Below are positions 35,966-59,423 of a DNA stretch of 64,000 nucleotides, in pieces. This DNA is from Sphingomonas nostoxanthinifaciens. GTDB taxonomy: Bacteria > Pseudomonadota > Alphaproteobacteria > Sphingomonadales > Sphingomonadaceae. The position numbers and the translations under genes are program-made. Where the stretch lies: contig NZ_CP082839.1 in the NCBI RefSeq assembly GCF_019930585.1, positions 3,344,001 to 3,408,000 of the forward strand, read 5' to 3'. Numbering within the stretch: the stretch's first letter is position 1; every line of letters begins with the position of its first letter. The notes beneath the pieces are model-generated. The model had not been told where the DNA came from, searched no databases, and saw nothing but the letters and a program-made list of their open reading frames with translations.

Positions 35966-36205
35966 ATGGCGCCGGCATGGCTCGAGGCGGGGCGTAAACT
36001 GTTCGCATCGGGAATGCGGGCGAGCAGCGTTGTGCGAGCGATCGACGTCTCAATCCCCACGCCCTACAGACATTTCCCTCCTCCGAACAAGAAGGCCGCG
36101 TTGCCGAGAGTCGAGGTCCGCACTGCTGCCATCACCGACTCTGCGACGTTGGGCAGCGGCAAGACAATACTATCCGCCGTTCAGCCGAGGAGACTCAGCC
36201 CATGA
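35966..36205 (+). pseudogene. Possible remnant of a serine recombinase C-terminal HTH
   Basis: The segment AGRKLFASGMRASSVVRAID followed by VSIPTPYRHFP resembles the C-terminal helix-turn-helix of resolvase/invertase proteins. The rest of the 79 residues has no relatives that I recognise, and the catalytic domain is absent. It overlaps the start of the permease gene by four bases. It may be an old recombinase fragment or chance. Confidence 0.3.
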
Positions 36206-37332
36206 CGCACTTGTTGGACCTGGTCGGCCGGGCACTGGTGATGGCAGCAGGCATGTTCTGGCAGACCGGCTGGAGCCTCGTCCTCGGCTTCACGGTCTCC
36301 GGCCTGCTCCAGGCGATCGTGCCGGCAGATCAGATGCGCCAGGCACTTGGCCGCGCCGGCCCGCGCGAGATCGCCATCGCTACGCTGGCAGGCGCGGCAA
36401 GCTCGAGCTGTTCCTATGCCTCGGCCGCGATCATGCGCACGCTGTTCAAGAAGGGCGCGTCGTTCGTCGCCAGCATCGCCTTCCTGTTCGCCTCCACCAA
36501 TCTGGTGCTCGAGCTCGGTATCATCCTGTACCTGCTGCTCGGGTGGCAGTTTATGCTCGCCGAGTGGCTCGGCGGGCTGGTGCTGATCGCCGTTCTGAGC
36601 CTGCTGGTGAAGGCGACCTTGCCCCAGGGTCTGGCGGACGAGGCGCGCCACCACGAGGAGCAAAGGAGCGGTCACGAGCATATGAGCATGACCGTCGCGG
36701 GCGGCACTTGGCGCGAACGACTGCGCAGCCGCGACACGCCGGTGCGCGTCGCTCAGAACTTCGCGATGGATTGGCGGATGCTGTGGAAGGATCTCGCTGC
36801 TGGCTTCCTGATCGGCGGCGTCCTGACCGTCTTCGTCCCCGACAGCGTCTGGCAGGGCTTGTTCCTCGTCCACGCGTCACCTTGGGTCCGGCTTCCGCTC
36901 GACGCGCTGATCGGTCCGATCGTGGCGATGCTGACCTTCGTCTGCTCGATCGGCAACGTGCCGCTGGCAGCGGTGTTGTGGGGTGGGGGGGCGAGCTTCG
37001 GCGGGGTGGTGGCGTTCCTGTTCGCTGACCTGATCGTGCTGCCGCTGCTCGACATCTACCGTCGCTATTATGGCTGGCGAATGGCGCTCTACATGGGCGG
37101 GGTGTTCTACACCGCCATGGCGGTGGCCGCCCTGATCGTCGACCTCGGCTTCACGGCGGCAGGAATCGTGCCCCACGCGACCGGCGGCATCGAGGCGCGG
37201 GTGAGCCACTTCGAGATCAACTACACTTTTTGGCTGAACCTCGCCGCGCTGGCGCTGGCAATCTGGCTGTTCGTGTTGAACCGGCGCCACCCGATGAATC
37301 ACGACCATCATGCGATGCGTGCTAGCCGATGA
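36202..37332 (+). CDS. Permease of the DUF318/YraQ (ArsP-like) family
   Basis: A 376-residue membrane protein with about eight to ten hydrophobic segments. The family signature with paired Cys/Ser is LAGAASSSCSYASAAIMRTL, and a second half-repeat has MLTFVCSIGNVPLAAVLWGG. A His-rich loop (HHEEQRSGHEHM) and tail (NHDHHAM) could bind metal. Family members export organoarsenicals or are uncharacterised. It starts a five-gene membrane operon; the next gene overlaps by ATGA. Confidence 0.85.
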   Translation: MTHLLDLVGRALVMAAGMFWQTGWSLVLGFTVSGLLQAIVPADQMRQALGRAGPREIAIATLAGAASSSCSYASAAIMRTLFKKGASFVASIAFLFASTNLVLELGIILYLLLGWQFMLAEWLGGLVLIAVLSLLVKATLPQGLADEARHHEEQRSGHEHMSMTVAGGTWRERLRSRDTPVRVAQNFAMDWRMLWKDLAAGFLIGGVLTVFVPDSVWQGLFLVHASPWVRLPLDALIGPIVAMLTFVCSIGNVPLAAVLWGGGASFGGVVAFLFADLIVLPLLDIYRRYYGWRMALYMGGVFYTAMAVAALIVDLGFTAAGIVPHATGGIEARVSHFEINYTFWLNLAALALAIWLFVLNRRHPMNHDHHAMRASR

Positions 37333-38648
37333 CCGCGCGCATTCGACAGCTTCTAAATGCCGTGGGCGAGACGTTCTGGCTCCTGCCGGCCGCGCTAGTA
37401 GTCACCGGCATCCTGCTCGCAGTTGGGCTCGTTGAGCTCGACCGCAGCGGGCTGGTTCCGCAGTGGCTGATCGAAAGCCCGTTCCTCTACAACGGCGGGG
37501 GCACCGGTGCCCGCACGCTGCTGGGTGCGGTCGCCTCGTCGACGATCGGCGTCGCCGGCACGGTGTTCTCGATCACCATCGCCTCGCTGTCGCTGGCGGC
37601 GGGTCAGATGGGGCCGCGGCTGCTACGCAATTTCGTCAAGGATCGCGGCAACCAGTTCACGCTCGGCGCCTTCCTCGGCACCTTCTCCTACGCGCTGATG
37701 GTGCTCAGGAGCGTCAGGACGCAGGAGGAGGGGCCGTTCGTGCCTCACGCGGCGCTGACCGCCGGAATCCTCCTGGCGTTCCTGTGCGTGGGCGTGCTGG
37801 TGTTCTTCGTCGGCCATATGGCGGGCCGTATCAACGTCGACACCGTCATCGAGCTGGTGAGCCGCGATGTCGGCAACGCAATTCGTCGCCTGACCAGCAC
37901 TGATGCTCCGGCACCGGTCGCTGTACCGAGCTTCACCGACGCCGTGGCCGCGGTCGCCGATCCGCGGCAAGGCTACCTACAGGAGCTCGACGCTGACCAA
38001 CTGGCCGACTGGGCGGCTGCGCATGACTGCACGATCCAGCTTCTCGTCCGGCCGGGCGACTACGTCTTTCCAGGCGCCGCGATCGCCTTGGCGGAGCCCG
38101 CGCGCGACGGCATCGATCGCGCGATCCGGCGCGCCACGGCGCTCGGCGGCCAGCGGGTTAGCCGCATCGATCTTGAATTCGCGGTGCGCCAGCTCGTCGA
38201 AATCGCGGTGCGGGCGCTGTCACCGGGGATCAACGACCCGCACACGGCGATGAGCGTGCTCGACCGGTTGGGCGCGGCGCTCTGCGCAATCGTTTCTCGC
38301 CATCTGCCGCTCGGGCAGATCGAGCGCGGCGGTCAAGTTGCGCTCGTTGTGCCCGTGGTCGACTATGATGGCCTCGTAGATGCCATGTTCCACCTGATCC
38401 GCCAGAACGCCGCCGGCAGTGTCGCGGTGCTGATCCGCATGCTGGAGGTGCTGACGGTCATCGCCGGCGTTGAGCGTCGGCCAGAGCGGCTCGCCGTGCT
38501 GCGCAGGCATGCCGATCTGGTGCTCGGCGACGGCGAACGCGACGTCTCCACGCCTGCCGACCTCGATGATCTGAAGGGTCGGCACCGGCGCTTCACAGCG
38601 ATGCAGACGATCGGTCCGATCAGCATGGCGGAGCGCGAGGCGACATGA
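37329..38648 (+). CDS. DUF2254 membrane protein
   Basis: A 439-residue protein with four N-terminal membrane helices (WLLPAALVVTGILLAVGLVE, TVFSITIASLSLAAGQMGPR, LTAGILLAFLCVGVLVFFVG) and a soluble C-terminal half. The block QMGPRLLRNFVKDRGNQFTL and ALSPGINDPHTAMSVLDRLG are DUF2254 hallmarks. No function is established. It overlaps its neighbours by four bases on both sides. Confidence 0.9.
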   Translation: MTARIRQLLNAVGETFWLLPAALVVTGILLAVGLVELDRSGLVPQWLIESPFLYNGGGTGARTLLGAVASSTIGVAGTVFSITIASLSLAAGQMGPRLLRNFVKDRGNQFTLGAFLGTFSYALMVLRSVRTQEEGPFVPHAALTAGILLAFLCVGVLVFFVGHMAGRINVDTVIELVSRDVGNAIRRLTSTDAPAPVAVPSFTDAVAAVADPRQGYLQELDADQLADWAAAHDCTIQLLVRPGDYVFPGAAIALAEPARDGIDRAIRRATALGGQRVSRIDLEFAVRQLVEIAVRALSPGINDPHTAMSVLDRLGAALCAIVSRHLPLGQIERGGQVALVVPVVDYDGLVDAMFHLIRQNAAGSVAVLIRMLEVLTVIAGVERRPERLAVLRRHADLVLGDGERDVSTPADLDDLKGRHRRFTAMQTIGPISMAEREAT

Positions 38649-39022
38649 TGGAGCTGCTCAAGCAGGCGACGCTGTGGCTGGCGGCCGGTGTCGAGGCTGC
38701 GGCCGCGCTGGTGATCGGCCTGGCGGCGATCGAGGCGTTCGTGCGCGCGCTGATCCTGTTCGTACCGCGGCAGACCACGCTCGACGAGCCCGACGCCAAG
38801 GAGGCCGTCCGCCTGAAGCTCGGACGATGGCTCGCCGTCGCGCTGGAGCTCGAACTGGGCGCCGACATCCTGCGCACGGCCGTAGCGCCCACTTGGAACG
38901 AGATCGGCCAGCTTGGCGCGATCGTGGTCCTGCGAACCGCGCTGAACTTCTTCCTGCAGAAGGAGATCGACGGCGCGCAAGCACGACGCACCGCCGCTCC
39001 TGTCGACAGCACCCGGCCCTAA
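38645..39022 (+). CDS. DUF1622 small membrane protein
   Basis: A 125-residue protein with two membrane helices (LAAGVEAAAALVIGLAAIEA, NEIGQLGAIVVLRTALNFFL) and the family's central motif LGRWLAVALELELGADILRT. The role is unknown; it often accompanies channels and transporters. It starts inside the previous gene's end (ATG at 38645 or 38648) and precedes the MscS gene by 10 bases. Confidence 0.88.
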   Translation: MMELLKQATLWLAAGVEAAAALVIGLAAIEAFVRALILFVPRQTTLDEPDAKEAVRLKLGRWLAVALELELGADILRTAVAPTWNEIGQLGAIVVLRTALNFFLQKEIDGAQARRTAAPVDSTRP

Positions 39023-39032
39023 GGACACGACC

Positions 39033-39995
39033 ATGCACTTCCTCGGCATCGACTGGGTGGGCGTCAACGCCGACAACGGGCGCAAGCTGCTGCTGTCGCT
39101 GGCGTTCATCGCCATCGTGATCATCGCGAGCCGACTGCTGCGCGGCCTCGTCAGCCTCGTGCTTCGGCGGGTCGATCATGCCACCGTCCAGACGCGCTTC
39201 TGGACGCGGCAGGCGATCAGCCTCGTCGCCGCCATCGTTCTCATCCTCGGGCTGCTGTCGATCTGGTTCAGCGATCCGACCCGGCTCGCGACCGCCGCCG
39301 GGCTCATGTCCGCCGGTCTAGCCTTCGCGCTCCAGCAGCCGGTAACCGCCATCGCGAGCTACTTCGTCATCCTGCGCGGCAACACCTTCACGGTAGGCGA
39401 CCGTATCTCGATGGGCGGGGTGCGCGGCGATGTGATGCGGTTGGGGTTCATCCAAACGACGATCATGGAGATGGGCGAGCCGCCGGCCGTACAGGGCGCC
39501 GACCCGGCGGTGTGGGTCAAGAGCCGGCAGTTCACAGGCCGGATCGTCACCGTGAGCAACGCCAAGATCTTCGCCGAGCCGGTCTACAACTATACCCGCG
39601 ACTTTCCCTTCATCTGGGAGGAGATGGCGATTCCGATCACTTACCAGGCCGATCGCGCCAAGGTGGAGGCGATCATGCTCGACGCTGCTAAGGCGCAGGC
39701 GGTCGACCCGGACTCGCTCGCGGCCGACTACAAGGCAGGCCTGCAGGCACGGTTCGGCGTCGAACCGATCGACCTTGTGCCCCGCGTTTACTACCGCATC
39801 ACCGACAACTGGCTCGAGCTGACGGTGCGCTTCATTGTCCACACCCACGGCATCCGCAGTGCCAAGGACGCGATGAGCCGCACCATCATCGCCGAACTCG
39901 ACAAGGCCGGCATCGGCATCGCGTCCGCGACCTACGACATCGTCGGCTTCCCGCCGATCCGGATACGCCCCGAAGCGGCCGCTCCAGCCTCATGA
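39033..39995 (+). CDS. Small mechanosensitive-type channel (MscS family)
   Basis: A 320-residue protein. Three N-terminal helices include LLLSLAFIAIVIIASRLL and the pore-lining GLMSAGLAFALQQPVTAIAS. The beta domain follows (GNTFTVGDRISMGGVRGDV, VTVSNAKIFAEPVYNYT) and the cytoplasmic alpha/beta cage. It should release solutes on hypo-osmotic shock. Position between DUF1622 and a Na+/H+ antiporter suggests ion and turgor control. Confidence 0.92.
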   Translation: MHFLGIDWVGVNADNGRKLLLSLAFIAIVIIASRLLRGLVSLVLRRVDHATVQTRFWTRQAISLVAAIVLILGLLSIWFSDPTRLATAAGLMSAGLAFALQQPVTAIASYFVILRGNTFTVGDRISMGGVRGDVMRLGFIQTTIMEMGEPPAVQGADPAVWVKSRQFTGRIVTVSNAKIFAEPVYNYTRDFPFIWEEMAIPITYQADRAKVEAIMLDAAKAQAVDPDSLAADYKAGLQARFGVEPIDLVPRVYYRITDNWLELTVRFIVHTHGIRSAKDAMSRTIIAELDKAGIGIASATYDIVGFPPIRIRPEAAAPAS

Positions 39996-40020
39996 GCTTG
40001 AGGAGCACCTACCCATTTCC

Positions 40021-41286
40021 ATGATCCACGGCGTCTCGATCACGCCTTTCGACGCCGCCGCGATTCTGATCGTGCTGGCGGCGACACTCGGCTTCATCAA
40101 CGTCCGCTTCCTCCATCTGCCCCAGTCGATCGGGCTGACCGTGATGGGCGCGATCGCGTCGTTGCTGGTGGTGGGCATCGACCGGCTGCTGCCCGGCGGC
40201 AACCTCAGCCACGACGTGGCGCGCTTCCTCGACGGGATCGACTTCCACCGCACGTTGATGGACGGGATGCTGTCGTTCCTGCTGTTCGCGGGCGCACTCC
40301 ACGTCGACTGGCGCGAGATGCACCGGGGGCGCTGGGCGGTCATCGTGCTCAGCACCGCCGGGGTGTCGCTGTCGACCATCGTGATCGGGTGGGGCTTCCA
40401 CCTGCTGACCAGCGTCATGGGTCACGCGGTGCCGCTCCTCTGGTCGCTGGTGTTCGGTGCGCTGATCAGCCCCACCGATCCAGTCGCCGTGCTCGACATC
40501 CTCAAGCGAACCGACGTGACGCCGACCCTGGAAGCGACGGTCGCGGGCGAGAGCCTCTTCAACGACGGCGTGGGCGTAGTGGTCTTCGCCATCCTGCTCG
40601 CGGCTGCGGCCGGGAGCGAGGCGTTCTCCCTAGCCAACGCGTCGGTGCTGTTCTTAAGAGAGGCCGGAGGCGGCGTCGTCCTCGGCCTCGTGATCGGGTG
40701 GGTTGCGGTCCAGGCGATGTCGCGGATCGACGAGTACAAGGTCGAGGTGATGATCAGCCTGGCCGTAGTGATGGGTGGCTATGCCCTCGCCAACAAGATC
40801 GGCGTCAGCGGGCCAGTCGCCATGGCGATAGCGGGACTGCTCATCGGCAACCACGGCGTCGCCCATGCGATGAGCGCCACCACCCGCGATTACCTGCTCA
40901 AGTTCTGGTCGGTCATCGACGATCTGCTGAACGCGCTGCTGTTCCTGCTGATCGGGCTGGAGGTGGTGACGATCCCGTCGGAGGTATTGCTGATCGTCAT
41001 CGGTGTTGCGGCCATTCCGCTTGTGCTGATGGCCCGGGCCGTATCCGTGCTGATCCCGCTCGTGGCGGTGAAGCCGTTGCTGTCGCTAGGCCGCATGGCG
41101 CCTGTCACGCTGATCTGGGGTGGGATGCGAGGCGGTATCTCCGTCGCACTCGCGCTCAGCCTGCCGCACGCGCCCGTGCGCGACCTTGAGCTGACCGCCA
41201 CATACATCGTCGTCTTGTTCTCGGTAATCGTCCAGGGAGGCAGCATCGAGCGTGTGCTGGCCACGGCATCTCGCCGCATCAGCTGA
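40021..41286 (+). CDS. Na+/H+ antiporter, CPA1 family
   Basis: A 421-residue transporter with about 12 membrane segments. Ion-path motifs are ALISPTDPVAVLDILKRTDV and GESLFNDGVGVVVFAILL, with the acidic ND pair used for exchange; GGMRGGISVALALSLP is the conserved Arg helix. It exchanges cytoplasmic Na+ or K+ for protons. It is the last gene of the membrane operon, 25 bases after the channel gene. Confidence 0.93.
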   Translation: MIHGVSITPFDAAAILIVLAATLGFINVRFLHLPQSIGLTVMGAIASLLVVGIDRLLPGGNLSHDVARFLDGIDFHRTLMDGMLSFLLFAGALHVDWREMHRGRWAVIVLSTAGVSLSTIVIGWGFHLLTSVMGHAVPLLWSLVFGALISPTDPVAVLDILKRTDVTPTLEATVAGESLFNDGVGVVVFAILLAAAAGSEAFSLANASVLFLREAGGGVVLGLVIGWVAVQAMSRIDEYKVEVMISLAVVMGGYALANKIGVSGPVAMAIAGLLIGNHGVAHAMSATTRDYLLKFWSVIDDLLNALLFLLIGLEVVTIPSEVLLIVIGVAAIPLVLMARAVSVLIPLVAVKPLLSLGRMAPVTLIWGGMRGGISVALALSLPHAPVRDLELTATYIVVLFSVIVQGGSIERVLATASRRIS

Positions 41287-41487: not shown

Positions 41488-42339
41488 TTGACTAGCCTGC
41501 CTTTCACCTTCGGCATCAGCGAGTTCACGACGATGCCGTGGTCGTTCGACGAGGATATCGAACGCTATGCCCACCTTGGAGTCGACGCCATCGAGGTCGT
41601 CGAGGCCAAGCTCGACGATATGCGGTTCGCCGACCAGATGCAGTCCATCTCGACGGCGGGCCTCGCCATCAGCGGGGTGCAGCCGCGGGTCCGCACCTTC
41701 TTCGACAGCAGGATGATGCCAGACCCCAAGCCGCTCGACGAGCGGGTGGCGTGCCTGCGCCAGAGCATCGAGCGGCTGGGTCGATACGCGCCGGGCGTTC
41801 CCTTCATCACCAACACCGGGGCGCACCCGAAGGGTGACATGGCCGAGGCGATGAGGGTTGTGAGCCGGGAACTCAAGGAACTGGCCAAGGTCGCCGTCGA
41901 CCACGGCGTCACGCTGGCGCTCGAGCCGCTCAACCCCACCTCGGTCAACGTCGAGAGCGCCATCTGGACCGTCGACCAGGCGTTGGACGTGATCGAGGCG
42001 ACGGGCAGCGATGCGGTCGGCCTCTGCCTCGACTATTGGAACATCTGGCAGAACGACGATTTGGCTGCGGCGATCGCTCGCGCGGGCGATCGCATCTTCA
42101 CGGTTCAGGCGAGCGACTGGCGCACACCGCGATCGTTCGCCGATCGGATCGTGCCGGGCGATGGCGCCATTCCGCTCGCGGACCTGATCGCCACGACGCG
42201 GGCGACGGGCTACGCAAAGCCATGGGTGGTGGAGATCTTCTCGAACGACGTTGCCGATTCACTCTACGAGGATGACCTGGAAATGGTCATAAAACGATGC
42301 CGGGACGGAATGGCGGCTGCCTGGGGCGAGAGCGCGTGA
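41488..42339 (+). CDS. Sugar phosphate isomerase/epimerase (AP-endonuclease-2 TIM barrel)
   Basis: A 283-residue xylose-isomerase-like TIM barrel. Metal-binding Glu and His residues occur in ALEPLNPTSVNVES, GLCLDYWNIW and YAKPWVVEIFSND. Family members isomerise sugars or act on 3-keto-sugars, inositol and similar compounds. The gene opens a ten-gene operon; its stop overlaps the next start by GTGA. The substrate is unknown. Confidence 0.85.
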   Translation: MTSLPFTFGISEFTTMPWSFDEDIERYAHLGVDAIEVVEAKLDDMRFADQMQSISTAGLAISGVQPRVRTFFDSRMMPDPKPLDERVACLRQSIERLGRYAPGVPFITNTGAHPKGDMAEAMRVVSRELKELAKVAVDHGVTLALEPLNPTSVNVESAIWTVDQALDVIEATGSDAVGLCLDYWNIWQNDDLAAAIARAGDRIFTVQASDWRTPRSFADRIVPGDGAIPLADLIATTRATGYAKPWVVEIFSNDVADSLYEDDLEMVIKRCRDGMAAAWGESA

Positions 42340-43229
42340 GTCTCGGCTTCGCTGTCGATCGGATCGACGATGTCCGGCTCGACGGGCCCGAGGACCTGCT
42401 CGCCAAAAACCTGATGAGCCCGTTCGCCTGGCGCGTTGCCGGAGACGCTGGGCTGATGCTGCTGGTCCGCGCCGTGCCGCCCAACAAGGGCGATGACGAC
42501 GAGAGCGGGCGCATCTGGTATGGCCGCAGCGGCAGCGACGGGCTCACCTTCCGGATGGACGCAGCTCCAATCATCTGTCCCGGCAGCGGCGGGCATGACG
42601 CCAAAGGCTGCGAGGATCCTACAGTAGTGCAGACCGACGATGGCTATGTCGTCTTCTACACCGGCGTCGACACGGATGGGAAAGGTCATCTCCTCTACGC
42701 CACGGGCGCCGACATGCACTCGCTCGAGAAGCGCGGCATCGGCCTTCCCAACAGCAAGAGCGAGCAGAACAGCAAGGAAGCGACGCTCCTGCGCGCCGAG
42801 GATCGCTGGCAGCTACTGTACGAATATTCCCATGACGGCCACTCGCTTATCAGCTTGACCGATGGCGAGGGACCAAGCGGTCCGTGGCACGAGCAGCCGG
42901 ATCCGTTCGGGCCACGAGAGGGCAGATGGGACGGGTGGCACCTGTCCACTGGGCCGCTGCTGCGCAGCGACCCTGCGCGCCCGGTAATGTTCTACAACGG
43001 CGCTACCGAGAATGCGCATTGGGGCATCGGCTGGGTCGCGCTTTCGCCTGACTTGCGGACCGTCGTGGCACGGAGCGACGAACCGCTGATCGCGGCACCA
43101 CCCGATCCTTCCGGTCCGAGGGACATCTCCTTTGCCGCTTCCGTCGTCGACACCGAAGGGACGATCTGGCTCTATTACTCGCGCAACGATCGCGAGCTGA
43201 AGCGCGCCACCATCCGACAACTCGATTGA
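42336..43229 (+). CDS. Five-bladed beta-propeller glycosidase-like protein (GH130/GH43-like)
   Basis: A 297-residue protein starting at GTG 42336. Repeated propeller strands include CEDPTVVQTDDGYVVFYTGV, QLLYEYSHDGHSLISLTD and VMFYNGATENAHWGIGWVAL. Acidic residues sit at blade positions used by GH130 phosphorylases and hydrolases. There is no signal peptide, so it would act on cytoplasmic oligosaccharides. The start overlaps the isomerase stop, and the end overlaps the oxidase subunit start. Confidence 0.75.
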   Translation: MSLGFAVDRIDDVRLDGPEDLLAKNLMSPFAWRVAGDAGLMLLVRAVPPNKGDDDESGRIWYGRSGSDGLTFRMDAAPIICPGSGGHDAKGCEDPTVVQTDDGYVVFYTGVDTDGKGHLLYATGADMHSLEKRGIGLPNSKSEQNSKEATLLRAEDRWQLLYEYSHDGHSLISLTDGEGPSGPWHEQPDPFGPREGRWDGWHLSTGPLLRSDPARPVMFYNGATENAHWGIGWVALSPDLRTVVARSDEPLIAAPPDPSGPRDISFAASVVDTEGTIWLYYSRNDRELKRATIRQLD

Positions 43230-44095
43230 AGCGTCATCGGGCCACGGCCGACCTTGCCTGGATGAGGACAGTGACGGCGCTGGCGCTGCTCCCGCTCGGT
43301 GGCTGCGCGGCCCTGAAGCTGGGGGTCGTCAACCATGCGGGTCCGGTCGCGGCGGGCCAGTGGCACCTCTACCTGATCGTTGGCGCCGTGCTGGTGTTCG
43401 TCGCCGGGCCGGTGCTGCTGCTCGTCCCGATCGTCGCCTGGCATTACCGGCTAGCAAATAAAGACAGCGCGTTCAGCCCGAAGTGGAATTTCTCCTGGTC
43501 GCTGGAGGGGCTGATCTGGATCCCGCCCACCGGCATCGTCATCGGCCTCGGCATCTTGCTGTGGCACTACACCCACCGGCTCGACCCCTACCGGCCGATC
43601 GCGTCCGCGCAGGCGCCGCTGGAGGTGCAGGCGGTGGCGCTCGACTGGAAGTGGCTGTTCCTCTACCCGGACCAGCACATCGCGACAGTAAACGAGCTGG
43701 ACATCCCGGTCGGCCGCCCCGTCCACATCCGGCTGACCAGCGGCACGGTGATGCAGTCGTTGCTGATCCCGCAGCTCGCCGGCCAGATCTACGCGATGGC
43801 GGGGATGACGAGCCAGTTGAACCTGGAGGCCAGTCGAGCGGGCGTGTTCCGCGGCGAGAACGCACAGTTCAACGGCCAGGGCTTCCAGGCGGAGAAGTTC
43901 GACGTAATCGCCCGAACGCCCGCCGCGTTTGCGACGTGGGTCGGCCGGGTGCAAGCATCGAACCATCCCCTCGATGCTGCGGCAACCGCCACGATCTTCC
44001 GACGCTCGGTCCTCCCGCACCCGGTGGCCTTTTCCGCAGCGCCCGATGATCTTTTTCGCCGGGTGCTCGCCCGGTCTCAGGAGTCGAGACGATGA
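43226..44095 (+). CDS. cyoA: Quinol oxidase (bo3-type) subunit II
   Basis: A 289-residue lipoprotein-like subunit. The signal/lipobox region is ALALLPLGGC, followed by two membrane helices (WHLYLIVGAVLVFVAGPVLL, LIWIPPTGIVIGLGILLWHY) and a periplasmic cupredoxin domain (VQAVALDWKWLFLYPDQHIA). The CuA ligands are absent, so it serves a quinol rather than cytochrome c oxidase. The start is TTG 43226, within the previous stop. Confidence 0.92.
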   Translation: MKRHRATADLAWMRTVTALALLPLGGCAALKLGVVNHAGPVAAGQWHLYLIVGAVLVFVAGPVLLLVPIVAWHYRLANKDSAFSPKWNFSWSLEGLIWIPPTGIVIGLGILLWHYTHRLDPYRPIASAQAPLEVQAVALDWKWLFLYPDQHIATVNELDIPVGRPVHIRLTSGTVMQSLLIPQLAGQIYAMAGMTSQLNLEASRAGVFRGENAQFNGQGFQAEKFDVIARTPAAFATWVGRVQASNHPLDAAATATIFRRSVLPHPVAFSAAPDDLFRRVLARSQESRR

Positions 44096-46176
44096 CCCAG
44101 GGCCTTTGGCCAGCCCTACTCGGCCGCTTCGACTGGCAGGCGCTGCCGTTCGTGCGCGCGTGGGAAACGCCAACTGTCAGCGAGATTATTGGCGCGGGAG
44201 CCGCGTCGATCGTGATCGTCGGCGCGATCGGGCTCATGGCGCTGCTCACCTACCTGCATGCCTGGCGCTATCTATGGAAGGAGTGGCTCACCAGCCTCGA
44301 TCACAAGCGGATCGGCATCATGTACGTCGTACTCGCCTTTGTCATGCTGTCGCGCGCGCTGGTCGAGGCAGTGCTGATGCGGATGCAGCAGGCGAGCGCG
44401 ATCGACGCGCCCGGCTTCGTCGAGCCCGACCATTTCGCGCAGCTGTTCAGCACCCACGGCAGCATCATGATCTTCTTCATGGCAATGCCGTTCCTGACCG
44501 GGGTCATCAACTATGTGACCCCGCTGCAGATCGGCGCGCGCGACGTCGCCTTCCCGCTGCTCAACTCGATCAGCCTATGGCTGACCGGCGGCGCGGCGGG
44601 GCTGATGATGGTCAGCCTCGTCATCGGCCGCTTCTCGACCGGTGGGTGGAGCGGCTATCCGCCCTATACCGAACTTGCCTTCAGCCCCGACGTCGGGCCG
44701 GACTATTGGATCTGGGCGGTGACGCTGGGGTCAGTCGCTTCGACCCTGACCGGGCTCAACTTCGCGACCACGATCTACAAGATGCGCTGCCCTGGCATGA
44801 CGCTGATGCGCATGCCGCTGTTCGTGTGGACGGCGCTCTGCACTAGCATCCTGATGATCTTCGCGATGCCGCCGCTGACCGTCGCGACGGCGCTGCTCGC
44901 GCTCGACCGCTATTTAGGCGCCCACTTCTTCACGAACGACCTTGGCGGCAACATGATGATGTATGCCAACCTGTTCTGGCTGTTCGGTCATCCCGAGGTC
45001 TATATCCTGATCCTGCCGGCGTTTGGCGTTTATTCCGAGGTCGTGTCGACCTTCTCGTCCAAGGAGCTCTACGGCTACACCTCGCTGGTGCTGGCGACGA
45101 TGGCGATCGCGGTGCTGTCGTTCACCGTTTGGGTCCACCACTTCTTCACAATGGGGCAGAACGCTAATCTCAATGCGGTGTTCGGCATCGCGACGATGAC
45201 GATCGGCGTGCCCACCGGTGTCAAGATCTATGACTGGATCTGGACGATGTTCCGGGGCGAGGTACGCTTCACCGTGCCGATGCTCTATTCACTGGCGTTC
45301 ATGATGACGTTCGTGCTGGGCGGCTTCACTGGCATCCTGCTTGCTTTTCCGCCGCTCGACTATCTCGTCCACAACACGCTGTTCCTCGTCGCGCACTTCC
45401 ACAACATGCTGATCCCGGGGACGCTCTACGGTATGCTGGCGGCGTACCATTATTGGTTCCCCAAAGCGTTCGGGTTCCGGCTTAACGAGAGGTGGGGCCG
45501 CATCTCGTTCGGCTGCTGGGTCGTCGGCTTCTATACCGCCTTCATGCCGCTCTACGTGCTAGGCGCAAGTGGCGCCGCACGGCGGACGCAGGCGTTCTAC
45601 GAGCCCGCGTTCCGGCCGTGGCTGTATGTTGCCGGAGTGGGCGCGCTGATTCTGCTGGGCGCGCTCGCCTCCCTGTTCGTGCAGCTATGGATCAGCATCC
45701 GCGACCGCGACGCCAACCGCGTGTTCGCGGGCGACCCGTGGGACGGGCGCGGGCTGGAATGGTCGGTGTCGGCACCGCCGCCGGAGTTCAACTATGCGGT
45801 GCTTCCGCAGGTCGCCGCCCGCGATCCATTCTTCGATGGCAAGCGCGCGGGCGATCCCTATGCGGCCCCCGCGACCTACGAGGACATCGAGGTGCCGAGG
45901 AACAGCATGACCGGGCCGGTGATCGGCATAGTCGGCGCCGCGCTCGCGTTCGCGCTGGTGTGGCACATCTGGTGGCTGGCGATCCTCTGCGCCCTCGGCA
46001 TCGTCGCCGCTGTGATTGCCCGCAGCTTCGCGCGCGACGTGCACCGCACGGTCACCGCCGCCGAGGTCGCTAGGATCGACCGGCACTGGCGCGCCGCGGT
46101 CGCAGAAGCGAAGCCGATCCCACGCCACATCGAGACGACCTCGGCCAACCGGGGCCTCGCCGAGGTGCCGGCATGA
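44092..46176 (+). CDS. cyoB: Quinol oxidase (bo3-type) subunit I
   Basis: A 694-residue haem-copper oxidase core. Ligand motifs are GHPEVYILILPAFG, VHHFFTMG and HFHNMLIPG, with the K-channel Lys in GVPTGVKIYDWIW. In the quinol site Arg71, His98 and Gln101 equivalents are present (SRALVEAVLMR, DHFAQLF), but the Asp75 equivalent is Glu. It reduces oxygen to water and pumps protons. The start overlaps cyoA by ATGA. Confidence 0.95.
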   Translation: MTQGLWPALLGRFDWQALPFVRAWETPTVSEIIGAGAASIVIVGAIGLMALLTYLHAWRYLWKEWLTSLDHKRIGIMYVVLAFVMLSRALVEAVLMRMQQASAIDAPGFVEPDHFAQLFSTHGSIMIFFMAMPFLTGVINYVTPLQIGARDVAFPLLNSISLWLTGGAAGLMMVSLVIGRFSTGGWSGYPPYTELAFSPDVGPDYWIWAVTLGSVASTLTGLNFATTIYKMRCPGMTLMRMPLFVWTALCTSILMIFAMPPLTVATALLALDRYLGAHFFTNDLGGNMMMYANLFWLFGHPEVYILILPAFGVYSEVVSTFSSKELYGYTSLVLATMAIAVLSFTVWVHHFFTMGQNANLNAVFGIATMTIGVPTGVKIYDWIWTMFRGEVRFTVPMLYSLAFMMTFVLGGFTGILLAFPPLDYLVHNTLFLVAHFHNMLIPGTLYGMLAAYHYWFPKAFGFRLNERWGRISFGCWVVGFYTAFMPLYVLGASGAARRTQAFYEPAFRPWLYVAGVGALILLGALASLFVQLWISIRDRDANRVFAGDPWDGRGLEWSVSAPPPEFNYAVLPQVAARDPFFDGKRAGDPYAAPATYEDIEVPRNSMTGPVIGIVGAALAFALVWHIWWLAILCALGIVAAVIARSFARDVHRTVTAAEVARIDRHWRAAVAEAKPIPRHIETTSANRGLAEVPA

Positions 46177-46796
46177 GCGACGCGGTGAAGCACGCCGGCC
46201 TCAACCTGGGCGCTACCGACGAGGAGACGCACGAGCAGGCCGAAAGCGAGCTGTTCGGGTTCTGGGTGTTCCTGATGAGCGACGCGGTAATCTTTGCGCT
46301 GCTGTTCGCCACCTACGGCGTGATGCTGCCCGCCACCGTGGGCGGCCCGACGCCGGCGAGCGAATACAAGATCGCGCCGGCGTTCGTCGAAACGCTGATC
46401 CTGCTCACCAGCAGCTTCACCTACGGCATGGCCTCGATCGCGATGAAGCACGGCGAACCGCGCCGCGTGCTGCTCGGCTGGATGGGCGCGACGCTGGGGC
46501 TCGGCGTCGTGTTCCTCGGGCTGGAGCTGCATGATTTCGCGACGATGTTCGGCGACGGCGCTTGGCCGAGCCGCAGCGGCTATCTGTCGTCCTTCTTCGC
46601 GCTGGTGCCGCTGCATGGGCTGCACGTCTTGGTCGGCTGCGTGTGGCTGGTCGTGATGGCGGCGCAGGTGCTGACGTTCGGGCTCGACGCGCGGGTGAAG
46701 ATCAACCTGCTGCGGCTAGGCTTGTTCTGGCATTTCCTCGACATCGTGTGGATCGCGATCTTCTCGGTCGTCTACCTCCAGGGGTTGATCCGATGA
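46173..46796 (+). CDS. cyoC: Quinol oxidase subunit III
   Basis: A 207-residue subunit with five membrane helices, starting with a soluble segment of about 25 residues. Typical marks are ESELFGFWVFLMSDAVIFAL, SFTYGMASIAMK and PLHGLHVLVGCVWL. It stabilises subunit I. It overlaps both neighbours by four bases (ATGA). Confidence 0.93.
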   Translation: MSDAVKHAGLNLGATDEETHEQAESELFGFWVFLMSDAVIFALLFATYGVMLPATVGGPTPASEYKIAPAFVETLILLTSSFTYGMASIAMKHGEPRRVLLGWMGATLGLGVVFLGLELHDFATMFGDGAWPSRSGYLSSFFALVPLHGLHVLVGCVWLVVMAAQVLTFGLDARVKINLLRLGLFWHFLDIVWIAIFSVVYLQGLIR

Positions 46797-47107
46797 GCGG
46801 GTCGACCGACGACAAGCGGCGCGAGGTGCGTGGCTATGCGATCGGCTACGCGCTTGCGCTCGCGCTGACGGGGGCGGCATTCGCGGCCGTGCGCTGGCCG
46901 TCGTTCGCAGGCGGGACGACGCTCGCGATCGTGTTCGGACTCGCGCTCGTGCAGGTGGTGGTGCATTTCCGCTTCTTCCTGCACGTCACGCTGGCGCGGT
47001 CGGCGCGCGACGACCTGCTGCTGATCCTGTTCGCGACGCTGATCGTGATCCTGATGGTCTCGGGAACGCTCGTGATCCTCTTCAACCTGCGCCAGCGGAT
47101 GATGTAG
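46793..47107 (+). CDS. cyoD: Quinol oxidase subunit IV
   Basis: A 104-residue protein with three membrane helices (GYAIGYALALALTGAAFAAV, TTLAIVFGLALVQVVVHFRF, DLLLILFATLIVILMVSGTL), the standard subunit IV pattern. It assists assembly of the oxidase. No haem O synthase (cyoE) gene lies in the operon. The next gene begins 28 bases on. Confidence 0.9.
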   Translation: MSGSTDDKRREVRGYAIGYALALALTGAAFAAVRWPSFAGGTTLAIVFGLALVQVVVHFRFFLHVTLARSARDDLLLILFATLIVILMVSGTLVILFNLRQRMM

Positions 47108-47135
47108 GCTGAAGGCGAACGGAGAAGACGGCGGC

Positions 47136-48698
47136 ATGAGCGAGCATTACGACCTGATCGTCATCGGCAGCGGCCCGGGCGGCGCCTCGCTGGCGCAGCG
47201 GCTGGCGCCCACCGGCAAGAGCATCCTGATCCTGGAGCGCGGCGATTACCTGCCGCGCGAGGAGTCGAACTGGGATTCCAGGGCGGTGTTCGTCGATGGC
47301 CGCTACCAGGCCGACGAGACCTGGACCAACGCCGAGGGCCAGACGTTCAGCCCCGCGCTGCACTATTATGTCGGCGGCAACTCGAAGGTGTATGGCGCAG
47401 CGCTGTTCCGGCTGCGCGAGCGCGATTTCGGCGAAGTGGTGCATGCCAGCGGCATCTCGCCCGCCTGGCCGCTCGGCTACGATGCGTTCGCGCCGTACTA
47501 CGACGAGGCGGAGGCGCTGTTCCACGTCCATGGCCGCCGCGGCGAGGACCCGACCGAGCCGCCGAGCACGACGCCCTACCCGTTCGCGCCGGTCAAGCAC
47601 GAGCCCAGGGTCGCCGAGTTGTCCGACAAGCTTGAGGGCATCGGCCTCAAGCCGTTCCACCTGCCGCTCGGCATCCTGCTCGACCAGAAGGAGGACGGCA
47701 GCGCCACCCCGACCAGCACCTGCATCCGCTGCTCCTACTTCGACGGCTTCCCCTGCCTGCTTAACGGCAAGGCGGACGCGCAGGTGATCTGCATCGATCC
47801 GATGCTGGCCACGCACGACAACGTGGCGTTGCTGACCGGCGCCTATGTGTCGAAGCTCGGCACTGACCCCACCGGACGCAGGATCAACGCCGTGCACGTC
47901 ACCCGCGCCGGCCGGGAGGAGGTCTACACGGCCGACACGGTCGTGGTCGCCTGCGGCGCGCTGTCGTCGGCGCTGCTGCTGCTGCGCTCGGCGAGCGAGC
48001 GGCATCCCGAGGGCCTCGCCAACAGCTCGGGACAGGTGGGCCGCAATTACATGCGCCACGACATGAGCATCGTCGTCGCGGTGATGCGCCACGTCAACGA
48101 GACGGTGTTCCAGAAGACGCTGGCGTTCAGCGACTTCTATTTCGGTGCGGACGACTGGGAGTATCCGCTCGGCCTGATCCAGATGTGCGCGACCAGCCAC
48201 CCCGAGCAGATCAAGGGCGAGGAGCTGCCCGGCTGGCTCGAATGGCTGCCCGACATGCCGTTTGACCAGATTGCGCGCCACTCGATGGACTTCTGGCTGC
48301 AGGCGGAGGACCTGCCGCATCCCGAGAACCGCGTCTACTACAAGGATGGCAAGGTCCATCTCGACCTCGTCGAGACCAATCCAGAGGCGCTGAAGCACCT
48401 CAAGCGCAAGCTGAAGGACGTGCTGGCCAGGATCGGCTGGCCGGCGGTACTGCTCGAACGCTCGTTGTATCTCGGCAAGGACATCCCGTTGTCGGGCACC
48501 GCCCACCAAGCGGGAACCTGCCGGTTCGGGACCGATCCGGCGACGTCGGTGCTGAACCTCGACTGCCGCGCGCACGACGTCGACAACCTCTATGTCGTTG
48601 ACGCGAGCTTCTTTCCCTCGATCGGCGCGGTCAACCCGACCCTGACGATCATCGCCAACGCGCTGCGGGTGGCGGACATCCTCAAGGACCGGCTGTGA
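47136..48698 (+). CDS. GMC-family FAD-dependent oxidoreductase
   Basis: A 520-residue flavoprotein. The FAD-binding motif is YDLIVIGSGPGGASLAQRLA; the GMC C-terminal half has GTAHQAGTCRFGTDP and NLYVVDASFFPSIGAVNPTL with the active-site His and Asn. A CIRCSYFDGFPCL segment is Cys-rich. It likely oxidises a sugar or alcohol, and relatives include glucoside 3-dehydrogenases. There is no signal peptide. It directly follows cyoABCD and precedes a DoxX protein, so electrons probably enter the quinone pool. Confidence 0.88.
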   Translation: MSEHYDLIVIGSGPGGASLAQRLAPTGKSILILERGDYLPREESNWDSRAVFVDGRYQADETWTNAEGQTFSPALHYYVGGNSKVYGAALFRLRERDFGEVVHASGISPAWPLGYDAFAPYYDEAEALFHVHGRRGEDPTEPPSTTPYPFAPVKHEPRVAELSDKLEGIGLKPFHLPLGILLDQKEDGSATPTSTCIRCSYFDGFPCLLNGKADAQVICIDPMLATHDNVALLTGAYVSKLGTDPTGRRINAVHVTRAGREEVYTADTVVVACGALSSALLLLRSASERHPEGLANSSGQVGRNYMRHDMSIVVAVMRHVNETVFQKTLAFSDFYFGADDWEYPLGLIQMCATSHPEQIKGEELPGWLEWLPDMPFDQIARHSMDFWLQAEDLPHPENRVYYKDGKVHLDLVETNPEALKHLKRKLKDVLARIGWPAVLLERSLYLGKDIPLSGTAHQAGTCRFGTDPATSVLNLDCRAHDVDNLYVVDASFFPSIGAVNPTLTIIANALRVADILKDRL

Positions 48699-49159
48699 CG
48701 AGCGCCGCCATCGTCGCAGGCGTCGTCCGCTACGGGCTCGTGCTGCTGTTCCTGCCGTTCAGCGCGCTCGACAAGGTGCTGAACTTCGGCGGCGCGGTTC
48801 GCCAGGCGCAGCAGGTGTTCACGCCGCGGCCGCTGGCGACCGCCGTGCTGCTGACCGGCCTCGCCATCGAGGTCTTCTGCTCGCTCGGCGTCGTCACCGG
48901 CATCGCTGATCGCGCCGCTGCCTTTGTACTCGCCGGCTACTGCGCAGTGACGGCCGTGCTCTACAAGCGGTTCTGGGCGCCGGGCGACTTCTGGGTCGAC
49001 CCGGACGGCAAGGGGCGCACCCTGTTCTGGGACTTCCTCAAGAACCTATCGCTCGGCGCAGGCTTCCTGCTGATCGTGGTCGGCACGGACGGGCGGGGGC
49101 TTCAACCGTTTTTCGATGCGCCGTTCGCCTCCAGCCACCCCTATGGGAGTTCCTCATGA
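48695..49159 (+). CDS. DoxX-like membrane protein
   Basis: A 154-residue protein with four membrane helices, starting at GTG 48695 within the GMC stop. Family marks include LFLPFSALDKVLNFGGAV and YKRFWAPGDFWVDPDGKGRT. DoxX relatives form quinone-reducing or membrane-anchoring subunits of oxidoreductases. Here it may dock the GMC enzyme at the membrane; this is inference from position. Confidence 0.82.
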   Translation: MTSAAIVAGVVRYGLVLLFLPFSALDKVLNFGGAVRQAQQVFTPRPLATAVLLTGLAIEVFCSLGVVTGIADRAAAFVLAGYCAVTAVLYKRFWAPGDFWVDPDGKGRTLFWDFLKNLSLGAGFLLIVVGTDGRGLQPFFDAPFASSHPYGSSS

Positions 49160-49602
49160 GCGATCTCGGTCCGAAACCTGCCGTTCCCTACTGGCACCTG
49201 TACGTCGATGGCGACGGTGTCAGCCGGCAGGTACAATGCCACCTCAAGGGCTATGAGGCCAAGGGCGTCGGCCCCGCCGACCCGCAGTGGAACCTGAAGA
49301 TGGAGCGCGGCGAGGCCACGCCCGTCTTCACCGTCCAGCCGATTGGCTGGATCGGCGATTGGCACGAGAACCCCGCGCCGCAGTGGATCGTGGTACTGTC
49401 GGGCCGCTGGTTCATCGAGAGCATGGACGGCACCCGCATCGAGCAAGGTCCCGGCGAGTTCTCGTTCGGCGAGGACCAGGGTTGCACCGAAACGGGGGGT
49501 AAGAAGGGCCACAGGTCCGGCACGGTCGGCGACGTGCCGTGCTGCCTGATGACCGTGCAGCTCCACCGCGACCCGCAACGCGAGCCCTGCGGGGTCAAGT
49601 GA
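49156..49602 (+). CDS. Cupin-domain protein of the oxidase operon
   Basis: A 148-residue cupin starting MSDLGPKPAVPYWHLYVDGD. The core has WIGDWHENPAPQWIVVLSGR and IEQGPGEFSFGEDQGC. A Cys-Cys pair occurs in GDVPCCLMTVQ. The substrate is unknown; it may isomerise or bind the sugar product. It overlaps DoxX and VOC genes by four bases each. Confidence 0.8.
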   Translation: MSDLGPKPAVPYWHLYVDGDGVSRQVQCHLKGYEAKGVGPADPQWNLKMERGEATPVFTVQPIGWIGDWHENPAPQWIVVLSGRWFIESMDGTRIEQGPGEFSFGEDQGCTETGGKKGHRSGTVGDVPCCLMTVQLHRDPQREPCGVK

Positions 49603-50405
49603 CGCTCACGCGGATAACCGGCTTCCGGCTCGTAACCGGCGACCTCGACCGGCTAGAGCGCTTTTATGACGCGCTCGGCTTCGCGCTCGGTGAGCGCGGG
49701 CCGATCGGCGAGGGCGAACTGCGCCTGCTCGGCCGCAGCGGCACCGGCGAGCGTCTGACGATGCGCCTCGGCCCGTCTCGAATCGACCTCGACCGTTTCG
49801 ACCCACCAGGCCGCGCCTATCCGATCGAGGCAAACGCGGCGGACCTCGTCTTCCAGCACCTCGCGCTCGTCACCGACGATGCCGCCGCGGCCTGGGCTTG
49901 GGCCAAGGCGGCCGGCGCGATACCGATCAGCCGTGAATGCCCGGTGACGCTGCCGGCCTCGTCCGGCGGTGTCACCGCGGTCAAGTTCCGCGACCCCGAC
50001 GGGCACCCGCTCGAGTTCCTCCAGTTCCCGCCAAACACGAACCCGAACTGGGCAGGCAGCGGCATACTGGGGATCGACCACAGCGCCATCTCGGTCGCCG
50101 ATCTCGCCGCTAGTCGCCGCTTCTACGCAGATCATGGACTCAGCGCGGCAAGAGCGACGCTCAATCAGGGCCCGGCGCAGGTCGCGCTCGACGGCCTCGA
50201 CAGCGTGGTGGCAGATGTCGTGCCGATGCATCCGGCGGCGACGCCGCCGCACGTCGAGTTGCTCGCTTATCGCCACCCGCGCGGTCGCGCACAGGCACCC
50301 CCCGAAGTCGACGATATCGTCGCGACCCGCATCGTTTGGTTGGGCGACCAAACCGCGTTGCTGCGCGATCCTGACGGGCATCTGCACCAAGTCGAACGAG
50401 GGTGA
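49599..50405 (+). CDS. Double VOC (glyoxalase/dioxygenase-fold) protein
   Basis: A 268-residue protein starting at GTG 49599. Two VOC modules are visible: GFRLVTGDLDRLERFYDALG to FRDPDGHPLEFLQFP, and DHSAISVADLAASRRFYADH to LRDPDGHLHQVERG. Metal-binding His/Glu positions are present in each. It could be an epimerase, a lyase or a dioxygenase acting in the sugar pathway. It is the last gene of the operon. Confidence 0.83.
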   Translation: MTLTRITGFRLVTGDLDRLERFYDALGFALGERGPIGEGELRLLGRSGTGERLTMRLGPSRIDLDRFDPPGRAYPIEANAADLVFQHLALVTDDAAAAWAWAKAAGAIPISRECPVTLPASSGGVTAVKFRDPDGHPLEFLQFPPNTNPNWAGSGILGIDHSAISVADLAASRRFYADHGLSAARATLNQGPAQVALDGLDSVVADVVPMHPAATPPHVELLAYRHPRGRAQAPPEVDDIVATRIVWLGDQTALLRDPDGHLHQVERG

Positions 50406-50440: not shown

Positions 50441-50797
50441 TCACCGCACGATCCGGTCCGCACGGGCGGAGAAATCCGTAAGAGCCTGCCGCTTGGCCGC
50501 CCGGTTCAGTTCGGGACGGCCGTTGATCCGCGGGCAGTAAGCGGTCACGAGATAATTGACGATCGCCGCTTTATCCACGTTCGGGTGACGGGCGCGGATG
50601 CCGGCTGCGACTCCGGCGATCTCATTCTCATTCCCATGACCCAGCTGCGCTCCGGCAGCGCTGATCTGTGCCGGCGTTTCCTGCAGCGTTCCGGCGGCCT
50701 GACCGCTTTCAGGTGCAGGACATTCGATCGAGGCGTTGCTGCTCGAGCAACTAGCGGTGGCTGTCGCCAGCAACGCGATAATCATGGGACGGATCAT
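50441..50797 (-). CDS. Small hypothetical lipoprotein
   Basis: A 118-residue exported protein. The signal MIRPMIIALLATATASC ends at a lipobox-like Cys17. The mature part contains EIAGVAAGIRARHPNVDKAA and IVNYLVTAYCPRI. No family is recognised. The ATG overlaps the SMP-30 stop by ATGA, with GGAGA upstream. It closes the SDR / SMP-30 operon. Confidence 0.75.
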   Translation of the reverse strand: MIRPMIIALLATATASCSSSNASIECPAPESGQAAGTLQETPAQISAAGAQLGHGNENEIAGVAAGIRARHPNVDKAAIVNYLVTAYCPRINGRPELNRAAKRQALTDFSARADRIVR

Positions 50798-51789
50798 TGG
50801 TTTCTCTCCGCTTCGCCCGCGCTGAGATCGATTGCGAGCAGGTATTTGGTCGCGGCGATGAACAGCCGCGGGGCGCCCGCGCTGCCGAACGCCAGGTTGG
50901 AAGCGACCATCGGCGTCGGGATGAATCCCAGCTTGCGCCGATCTGCCGACCAGACGTGGACGCCATCCGCCGCGCTGGTCCATACCCAACCGCGTGCGTC
51001 GACCTTGAACCCGTCGGGATAGCCGTGGTCGGTGTGGCAGAAGAAGCGGCGGTTCGACAGTGCGCCATCCTCGCCCACGTCGAAGGCGATGATCTCGTGC
51101 TTCGTGCCCGCCTCGAACCCCGGCACCTCGCCCAGCGACAGCGACGTATCCGACACGTAGAGCGTGCCGCCATCGGCGGTGAAGGCGAGGCCGTTGGGCT
51201 GCTCGAAGTCCGCCATGCGGGCGAGTGCGCCCGTTAGCGGATCGAAGCGGTAGACGCTGCGATGATCGAGCTCCGGCTCGGCGAGTGCGCCCTGATTGGG
51301 CATAACGATGCCGAAGATCGGATCGGTGAACCAGATGCTGCCGTCCGGCGCCACCGCCACGTCGTTGGGCGAATTGATCCGCCGGCCCTCGAAGTGGGTG
51401 ACGATCGGCTCGGGCTGCGCGCTATCGTGGCCGCTTCGGCTGATGCAGCGGCGGCCATGCTCGGCATGAACCAGCGTGCCGTCGGGCAGGACAGCGTTGC
51501 CGTTCATGAACCACGTGCCCTCGATCACCACCTCGACGCGGCCGTCGGGATACCAGCCTAGCAGACGCCGATTGGGCACGTCCGACCATACCAGCCGGCT
51601 GCGCGACGCCTGCCATGTCGGCCCCTCGCCATGTACCGTGCCCTCGTGGAGCACGAGCAGAGGCGCATCGGGGGCGAGCATCTGTGCCAGCCGCTCGTCT
51701 TCGATCTGCACGCCTCGCCAGCCGTCCATCGGCTTCGGCGGCCCCGGCCGGCGCAGCAGCCGCGTCGGCAGCAGGTCGTCCCCGTTCAC
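50794..51789 (-). CDS. SMP-30/gluconolactonase family protein
   Basis: A 331-residue six-bladed propeller starting at GTG 51789. Marks are HEGTVHGEGPTWQASRSRLV with the metal Glu, INSPNDVAVAPDGSIWFTDP, QPNGLAFTADGGTLYVSDT and HGYPDGFKVDARGWVW. It should hydrolyse a sugar lactone such as gluconolactone. Coupled translation with the SDR gene (GTGA) suggests dehydrogenase then lactonase steps. Confidence 0.9.
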   Translation of the reverse strand: MNGDDLLPTRLLRRPGPPKPMDGWRGVQIEDERLAQMLAPDAPLLVLHEGTVHGEGPTWQASRSRLVWSDVPNRRLLGWYPDGRVEVVIEGTWFMNGNAVLPDGTLVHAEHGRRCISRSGHDSAQPEPIVTHFEGRRINSPNDVAVAPDGSIWFTDPIFGIVMPNQGALAEPELDHRSVYRFDPLTGALARMADFEQPNGLAFTADGGTLYVSDTSLSLGEVPGFEAGTKHEIIAFDVGEDGALSNRRFFCHTDHGYPDGFKVDARGWVWTSAADGVHVWSADRRKLGFIPTPMVASNLAFGSAGAPRLFIAATKYLLAIDLSAGEAERNQ

Positions 51790-55478: not shown

Positions 55479-55480
55479 CG

Positions 55481-56968: not shown

Positions 56969-57234
56969 TCCGCGCCTTGATCCATAGAGCTACGCCCGCC
57001 GAAGCCGACTTGTCGGATGCCTTTTAACGATGTCCCAGCTTGAGGAAAACCACCTCTGAACGGGCGCGATGCACGCATCGCTATGAAGATACTGGACAAA
57101 TTCGTGGCATCCCGCCCCTCGGACGCCCGTTCGATGCCATTCAGATACTGCCCAGCGCATTGAAAAAGCCTATGCATGGGCTGCTGGCAGCCGGCCCATC
57201 CTGGTCCTGAATCCAAGCAGGGACCGGTGAGGCG

Positions 57235-59289: not shown

Positions 59290-59423
59290 TTGATCCGAGA
59301 TGGAAACGGTGATCAAATGAAGGCGAGCGGCCGCGAAGACTCGGTCATAGAGAAAGAGCGTGTGATGTCGCCCGATCTAGACGATCGATTACACCCTCGA
59401 ATTCCACATGGTGGGTCTATCGA

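What the first reader, a model, noticed from the sequence alone, without database searches (positions are those of the whole stretch)
41488..50405. A private bo3-type quinol oxidase inside a sugar-oxidation operon
Ten genes run with four-base overlaps almost throughout: isomerase/epimerase, GH130-like protein, cyoABCD, a GMC flavoprotein, DoxX, cupin and a double VOC protein. This suggests that sugar oxidation by the GMC enzyme feeds quinol through DoxX to a dedicated oxidase. Several families (GMC dehydrogenase, TIM-barrel isomerase, cupin) recall the 3-keto-sugar pathway of glucoside 3-dehydrogenases. The coupling of these enzymes to a complete terminal oxidase is unusual.
Basis: partly seen in the sequence, partly recalled or inferred. 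Interest (0 to 1): 0.7.

Follow-up and report, generated by a model that had tools for sequence, protein, structure and literature searches.

The report
Sugar-dehydrogenase operon with its own oxidase
A soil-type bacterium carries a ten-gene operon in which a sugar-oxidising flavoenzyme sits with a complete proton-pumping oxygen reductase, and the same pairing, with several unrelated oxidases, recurs in many distant bacteria, which suggests that sugar oxidation is wired straight to oxygen.

Summary
Ten same-strand genes lie at 41488-50405; eight of nine junctions are 4-bp stop/start overlaps and one is a 28-bp gap. CyoA lacks CuA ligands, and CyoB keeps the E. coli quinol-site (except D75E), haem/CuB and proton-channel residues. 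The pairing is not a one-off. Orthologues of the GMC enzyme sit in a conserved module (DoxX, cupin, SMP-30 lactonase, VOC), and 12 of 80 sampled loci have a cyo-type quinol oxidase within 10 kb, against about 0.3 expected. Linkage arose several times, with at least four CyoB lineages, in both gene orders, and with cytochrome bd in two Streptomycetaceae. So GMC-oxidase coupling is well supported as a genomic pattern, but untested biochemically. "Private" is too strong: the closest CyoB (89%) has no GMC gene within 9 kb, and this genome has two more cyo operons. The 3-keto-sugar reading is not supported: the genome has no 3-keto-disaccharide hydrolase and no gluconate-2-dehydrogenase-3 subunit, the GMC's nearest structures are fructose and glucose dehydrogenases, and its usual neighbour is a lactonase. 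A sugar (probably aldose C1) dehydrogenase feeding ubiquinone is most likely. DoxX as electron relay is unproven.

The parts
41488..42339 (+). Xylose-isomerase-like TIM-barrel sugar isomerase/epimerase (TTG start)
   Evidence: PF01261 6e-33; nearest solved structure 7vpf 'Xylose isomerase' 1.8e-21
42336..43229 (+). GH130-like protein (GTG start)
   Evidence: GH130 2e-05, under cut-off; keeps G-x-EDP motif against 1,2-beta-oligomannan phosphorylase 9fj8
43226..44095 (+). CyoA, quinol oxidase subunit II (no CuA ligands; lipobox-like Cys near N terminus)
   Evidence: TIGR01433 1.2e-69; 1fft_B alignment
44092..46176 (+). CyoB, quinol oxidase subunit I
   Evidence: TIGR02843 3.9e-274; key residues as in E. 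coli except D75E and I102L
46173..46796 (+). CyoC, subunit III
   Evidence: TIGR02842 8.4e-60
46793..47107 (+). CyoD, subunit IV
   Evidence: TIGR02847 3.5e-21
47136..48698 (+). GMC-family FAD sugar dehydrogenase, no signal peptide or membrane anchor seen
   Evidence: PF05199/PF00732; model closest to fructose dehydrogenase and FAD-GDH, Z about 32; invariant H457 and N500; hydropathy
48695..49159 (+). DoxX-family membrane protein with invariant charged residues
   Evidence: PF07681 3.5e-06; conservation over 55 rows; helical bundle model pLDDT 87.6
49156..49602 (+). Cupin with invariant or nearly invariant H70, E71, Q76, H119 (putative metal site)
   Evidence: Cupin_2 4e-04, under cut-off; conservation over 70 rows
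49599..50405 (+). Two-domain VOC protein with invariant H87, E139, H161, E220 (GTG start)
   Evidence: PF00903 5.1e-14; conservation over 61 rows
50797..51786 (-). SMP-30/gluconolactonase-like protein, convergent with the operon (start not fixed)
   Evidence: PF08450 8.8e-39; 65% identical homologue in the same convergent place in L076
51789..52592 (-). SDR oxidoreductase
   Evidence: PF13561 5.7e-63; homologues (48-49%) beside iso and GH130-like genes in L057 and L086

Best explanation
The operon encodes a sugar-oxidising respiratory unit. The GMC flavoenzyme, which shows no signal peptide and so probably works at the cytoplasmic face of the membrane, takes two electrons from a sugar (most likely an aldose at C1, giving a lactone that the neighbouring SMP-30 protein hydrolyses) and reduces ubiquinone. 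The co-expressed bo3-type oxidase reoxidises the ubiquinol with O2 and pumps protons. Isomerase, GH130-like protein, SDR, cupin and VOC prepare the sugar or process the oxidised product. DoxX may dock GMC to the membrane or quinone, but this is a guess. Shown: gene content, residues, recurrent linkage. Inferred: substrate, quinone as acceptor, flux to this oxidase rather than to the others in the cell.
For: Tight operon. Quinol-type CyoA/CyoB with conserved sites. Linkage enriched: 12 of 80 loci (9 if four closely related MAG loci count once) in 1.22 Mb of flank, about 0.3 expected from cyo density in seven GMC-bearing genomes. Recurrent origin: at least 6 changes on the CyoB tree and at least 13 on the GMC tree. 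Same-strand abutment in five loci: cyoD then GMC with gaps of 28, about 42, 10 and 49 bp (window, L076, L052, L154), and GMC-cyoA overlapping by 4 bp in reverse order in Roseomonas. In L052 the slot holds a CyoB of a different lineage. Cytochrome bd beside the GMC gene in Streptomyces and Embleya. Lactonase at 52 of 80 loci, GH15 at 10; a gluconokinase in Streptomyces. Closest structures are fructose and glucose dehydrogenases that act on sugars. Precedent for GMC enzymes without their own cytochrome feeding respiration: MftG (PMC11778925).
Against: No biochemistry. Most related GMC loci (68 of 80) have no cyo within 10 kb (some contigs are short), so the oxidase is optional. The closest CyoB lacks a GMC neighbour. 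The genome has two other cyo operons, so exclusive flux is unlikely. No substrate-defining evidence; the lactonase is on the other strand here. The GMC lacks the small and cytochrome subunits of its characterised relatives, so its electron path is unknown.
Confidence: 0.5

Rival explanations
1. Island cohabitation: GMC module and alternative cyo operon are both frequent cargo of the same accessory, often plasmid-borne stress islands and lie together without working together.
For: The window's CyoB and its wider clade occur on plasmids without GMC, beside DUF2254, chloride channel, NhaA, MscS, FdhF/YdeP or PoxB-like genes; several linked loci are plasmid-borne; the window operon follows an ArsP-DUF2254-MscS-NhaP run.
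Against: Five loci show same-strand abutment of cyo and GMC within 50 bp, one with a 4-bp overlap; cyo here is translationally interleaved with the sugar genes; several oxidase lineages and cytochrome bd recur.
Confidence: 0.25
2. 3-keto-sugar pathway: GMC oxidises glucosides or disaccharides at C3; isomerase and cupin act on the 3-keto product.
For: GMC, PF01261 protein and a cupin together; a bacterial glycoside-oxidising GMC (7qva) also matches the model.
Against: No 3keto-disac_hyd (PF06439) and no Gluconate_2-dh3 (PF13618) in the genome, with positive controls elsewhere; the isomerase is beside the GMC only in a few sphingomonad loci; lactonase neighbours point to C1 oxidation.
Confidence: 0.12
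3. The GMC protein is not a sugar dehydrogenase but oxidises another alcohol, with the glycosidases incidental.
For: GMC enzymes are diverse; substrate cannot be read from sequence; identity to characterised sugar dehydrogenases is only 21-24%.
Against: Nearest structures are sugar dehydrogenases, clearly ahead of the next group (Z about 32 against 27); GH15, GH39, GH130-like, lactonase and gluconokinase neighbours across phyla.
Confidence: 0.13

Closest known systems
Membrane-bound FAD fructose dehydrogenase (Gluconobacter) and FAD glucose dehydrogenase (Burkholderia cepacia)
   Same: Same GMC fold and catalytic His/Asn; VIA Z about 32, 21-24% identity; sugar oxidation feeding respiration (general knowledge).
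   Different: No Tat-exported small subunit (family absent from the genome) and no cytochrome c subunit in the operon; oxidase genes are in the operon instead.
E. coli cytochrome bo3 ubiquinol oxidase (cyoABCD)
   Same: Same subunit order and nearly all functional residues.
   Different: About 51% identity in CyoB; a separate accessory clade with D75E and I102L; no cyoE in the operon; embedded in sugar genes.
MftG and PhcC/PhcD (GMC enzymes linked to the respiratory chain)
   Same: GMC dehydrogenases without their own cytochrome, proposed to pass electrons to the respiratory chain (PMC11778925).
   Different: Other substrates; no report seen of an oxidase operon beside them.
Bacterial 3-keto-glycoside pathways (glucoside 3-dehydrogenase; general knowledge)
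   Same: GMC plus xylose-isomerase-like protein.
   Different: Hallmark hydrolase and small subunit absent from the genome.

Membership tests
bo3-type quinol oxidase (Cyo) | Subunit II lacks CuA ligands | tested here: met
   CyoA aligns to E. coli CyoA without Cys/His ligands; motif search on neighbours finds CuA only in caa3-type loci
bo3-type quinol oxidase (Cyo) | Haem, CuB and D/K-channel residues in subunit I | tested here: met
   H106, H284, E286, Y288, H333, H334, K362, H419, H421, D135 all present
bo3-type quinol oxidase (Cyo) | Quinol-site residues R71, D75, H98, Q101 | tested here: inconclusive
   R71, H98 and Q101 kept; D75 is Glu in the clade members checked; effect unknown
FAD-GDH / fructose dehydrogenase-type GMC | GMC fold with catalytic His and Asn | tested here: met
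   Fold match; H457 and N500 invariant
FAD-GDH / fructose dehydrogenase-type GMC | Gluconate_2-dh3 small subunit for Tat hitchhiker export | tested here: not met
   No PF13618 match in the whole genome
FAD-GDH / fructose dehydrogenase-type GMC | Cysteine-ligated Fe-S cluster | tested here: inconclusive
   C196/C199/C207 nearly invariant but spaced differently, and two are missing in L028
3-keto-disaccharide pathway | 3-keto-disaccharide hydrolase (PF06439) | tested here: not met
   No match in the whole genome; control genomes ring
GH130 | Score over the family cut-off | tested here: not met
   24.1 bits against 26; EDP motif kept
Dedicated (private) oxidase | Oxidase clade found only with the dehydrogenase | tested here: not met
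   S. paeninsulae CyoB 89% without GMC within 9 kb; 12 further related cyo loci without GMC

The most novel reading that the evidence does not exclude
GMC, DoxX and a plug-in quinol oxidase form a previously undescribed modular respiratory chain: a cytoplasmic-side, cytochrome-free sugar:quinone oxidoreductase with DoxX as its quinone-docking subunit, repeatedly paired with whichever quinol oxidase is at hand (several bo3 lineages, cytochrome bd) as a sugar-powered O2-consuming, proton-pumping unit on mobile stress islands.
Probability: 0.25. Interest if true: 0.75.

Novelty: new variant of a known kind. Interest (0 to 1): 0.52.

Why it matters
Terminal oxidases are usually treated as shared sinks of the quinol pool. 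A sugar dehydrogenase module that repeatedly acquires its own quinol oxidase, of unrelated lineages, suggests selection for direct wiring or co-regulation of one dehydrogenase with one oxidase. It also gives a function to test for a widespread GMC-DoxX-cupin-SMP30-VOC gene set, found in lichen, leaf, soil and acid-habitat bacteria, and for DoxX, for which no solved structural match was found.

Tried and rejected
Chance gene packing: rejected by eight 4-bp overlaps. Misread cytochrome c oxidase: rejected (no CuA). Hitchhiker-exported glucose dehydrogenase: small subunit absent from the genome. 3-keto pathway: hallmark hydrolase absent. A single origin of GMC-cyo linkage followed by vertical descent: rejected by both trees, though root and long branches make exact counts uncertain. 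Literature: DoxX+GMC and cyoABCD+GMC searches of the open library found nothing relevant; subscription papers are not covered. DoxX fold search gave no significant match, which does not show a new fold. Promoter and terminator scan was uninformative.

Full report
Observation. Eight of nine junctions are 4-bp stop/start overlaps; cyoD to GMC is a 28-bp gap. Families: PF01261 TIM barrel; a weak GH130; four Cyo subunits; GMC; DoxX; cupin; two-domain VOC. The operon begins 201 bp after a Na+/H+ exchanger gene and ends against a convergent SMP-30/gluconolactonase and SDR. The genome is one 4.3-Mb contig.

The oxidase. CyoA has no CuA ligands, and CyoB keeps the haem, CuB and proton-channel residues and three of four quinol-site residues checked; D75 is Glu and I102 is Leu, shared with the clade members checked. 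It is therefore a quinol oxidase. The genome has two further cyo operons (49-50% identical CyoB) and an additional COX2 locus.

The GMC enzyme. It has no evident signal peptide or anchor. Sequence and fold place it nearest to the large subunits of fructose dehydrogenase and FAD glucose dehydrogenase (model pLDDT 75.9 with the active-site loops weaker). Those enzymes need a Gluconate_2-dh3-type small subunit and a cytochrome (general knowledge); no PF13618 gene was found in this genome. The GMC must use another electron route, most simply quinone, as proposed for MftG and PhcC/D (PMC11778925).

The conserved module. In 80 named genome loci chosen by GMC similarity alone, DoxX occurs at 57, VOC at 54, SMP-30 at 52 and cupin at 50. 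Other neighbours include SDRs, GH15 and glycoamylase/GH39 proteins. DoxX, cupin and VOC carry invariant polar or metal-type residues, so they look like working parts rather than passengers. The isomerase and GH130-like genes are confined to a few sphingomonad loci (L057, L086), where they form a cassette with an SDR; a similar cassette lies on a Sphingomonas paeninsulae plasmid.

The oxidase link. Twelve of the 80 loci have cyoAB within 10 kb. The cyo density in seven GMC-bearing genomes is about 0.25 per Mb (eight matches in about 32.5 Mb; the search scored at most two candidates a genome, so this may be low). That predicts about 0.3 in 1.22 Mb; even at three times that density, 9 independent cases have probability about 5e-7. 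Arrangements vary: cyoABCD-GMC-DoxX-cupin-VOC in L076, cyoABCD-GMC in L052 and Lichenicola, GMC-cyoABCD in Roseomonas, cyo-SDR-GH15-GMC in Lichenicoccus. The CyoB tree needs at least six changes of linkage; the window clade contains only linked rows from Sphingomonadales, Burkholderiaceae and Acetobacteraceae, while L052, in the same family as the window, has the same order with a CyoB from the lineage of the window genome's other cyo operon. The closest CyoB of all (S. paeninsulae, 89%) was found after this tree was built, is not in it, and is unlinked. The GMC tree forces at least 13 changes. Streptomyces canus and Embleya have cytochrome bd beside the GMC gene. Three loci have caa3-type oxidases (CuA and haem c) within 10 kb. 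Acidiphilium retains a decayed cyoA just before DoxX.

Limits. The closest CyoB has no GMC gene within 9 kb, and 12 related cyo loci have none either. Many of these operons sit on plasmids among ion-channel, exchanger and stress genes, so cohabitation on accessory islands is the main rival. Same-strand abutment in five loci, one with an overlapping junction, argues against it but is not proof of electron coupling.

Substrate. The lactonase neighbour, glycosidases, a gluconokinase in Streptomyces and the fold relatives point to a sugar, probably an aldose at C1; this is inference. The 3-keto reading loses its hallmark hydrolase and small subunit.

Verdict. The anatomy is confirmed, and a recurrent GMC-quinol oxidase pairing is a real and apparently undescribed genomic pattern (open-library searches only). 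Mechanism and substrate remain to be tested.

Noticed in passing
36202-41286: Same-strand run ArsP permease, DUF2254, 125-aa protein, MscS channel, NhaP-type exchanger directly upstream; DUF2254, chloride channel, MscS and exchanger genes recur near related GMC or cyo loci (L201, L205, L210, L211, L214).
   Followed up: partly
44092-46176: The accessory CyoB clade carries D75E and I102L at the quinol site relative to E. coli; possible change in quinol affinity or type.
   Followed up: partly
L151:14800-15420: Acidiphilium pACRY01 has a frameshifted cyoA remnant (up to 75% identical to the window) immediately before DoxX, a lost oxidase in the same module.
   Followed up: partly
L209:8141-12018: Sphingomonas paeninsulae conjugative plasmid has the closest CyoB (89%), its reading frame apparently interrupted near residue 634, beside an FdhF/YdeP oxidoreductase.
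   Followed up: partly
L057:4539-8162: A caa3-type oxidase (CuA and haem c motifs) lies between the GH130-like cassette and the GMC module in a relative of the window genome.
   Followed up: partly
53331-60506: Molybdopterin oxidoreductase (sulfite-oxidase family), two PAS histidine kinases with receiver domains and a KaiC-like ATPase downstream of the operon.
   Followed up: no
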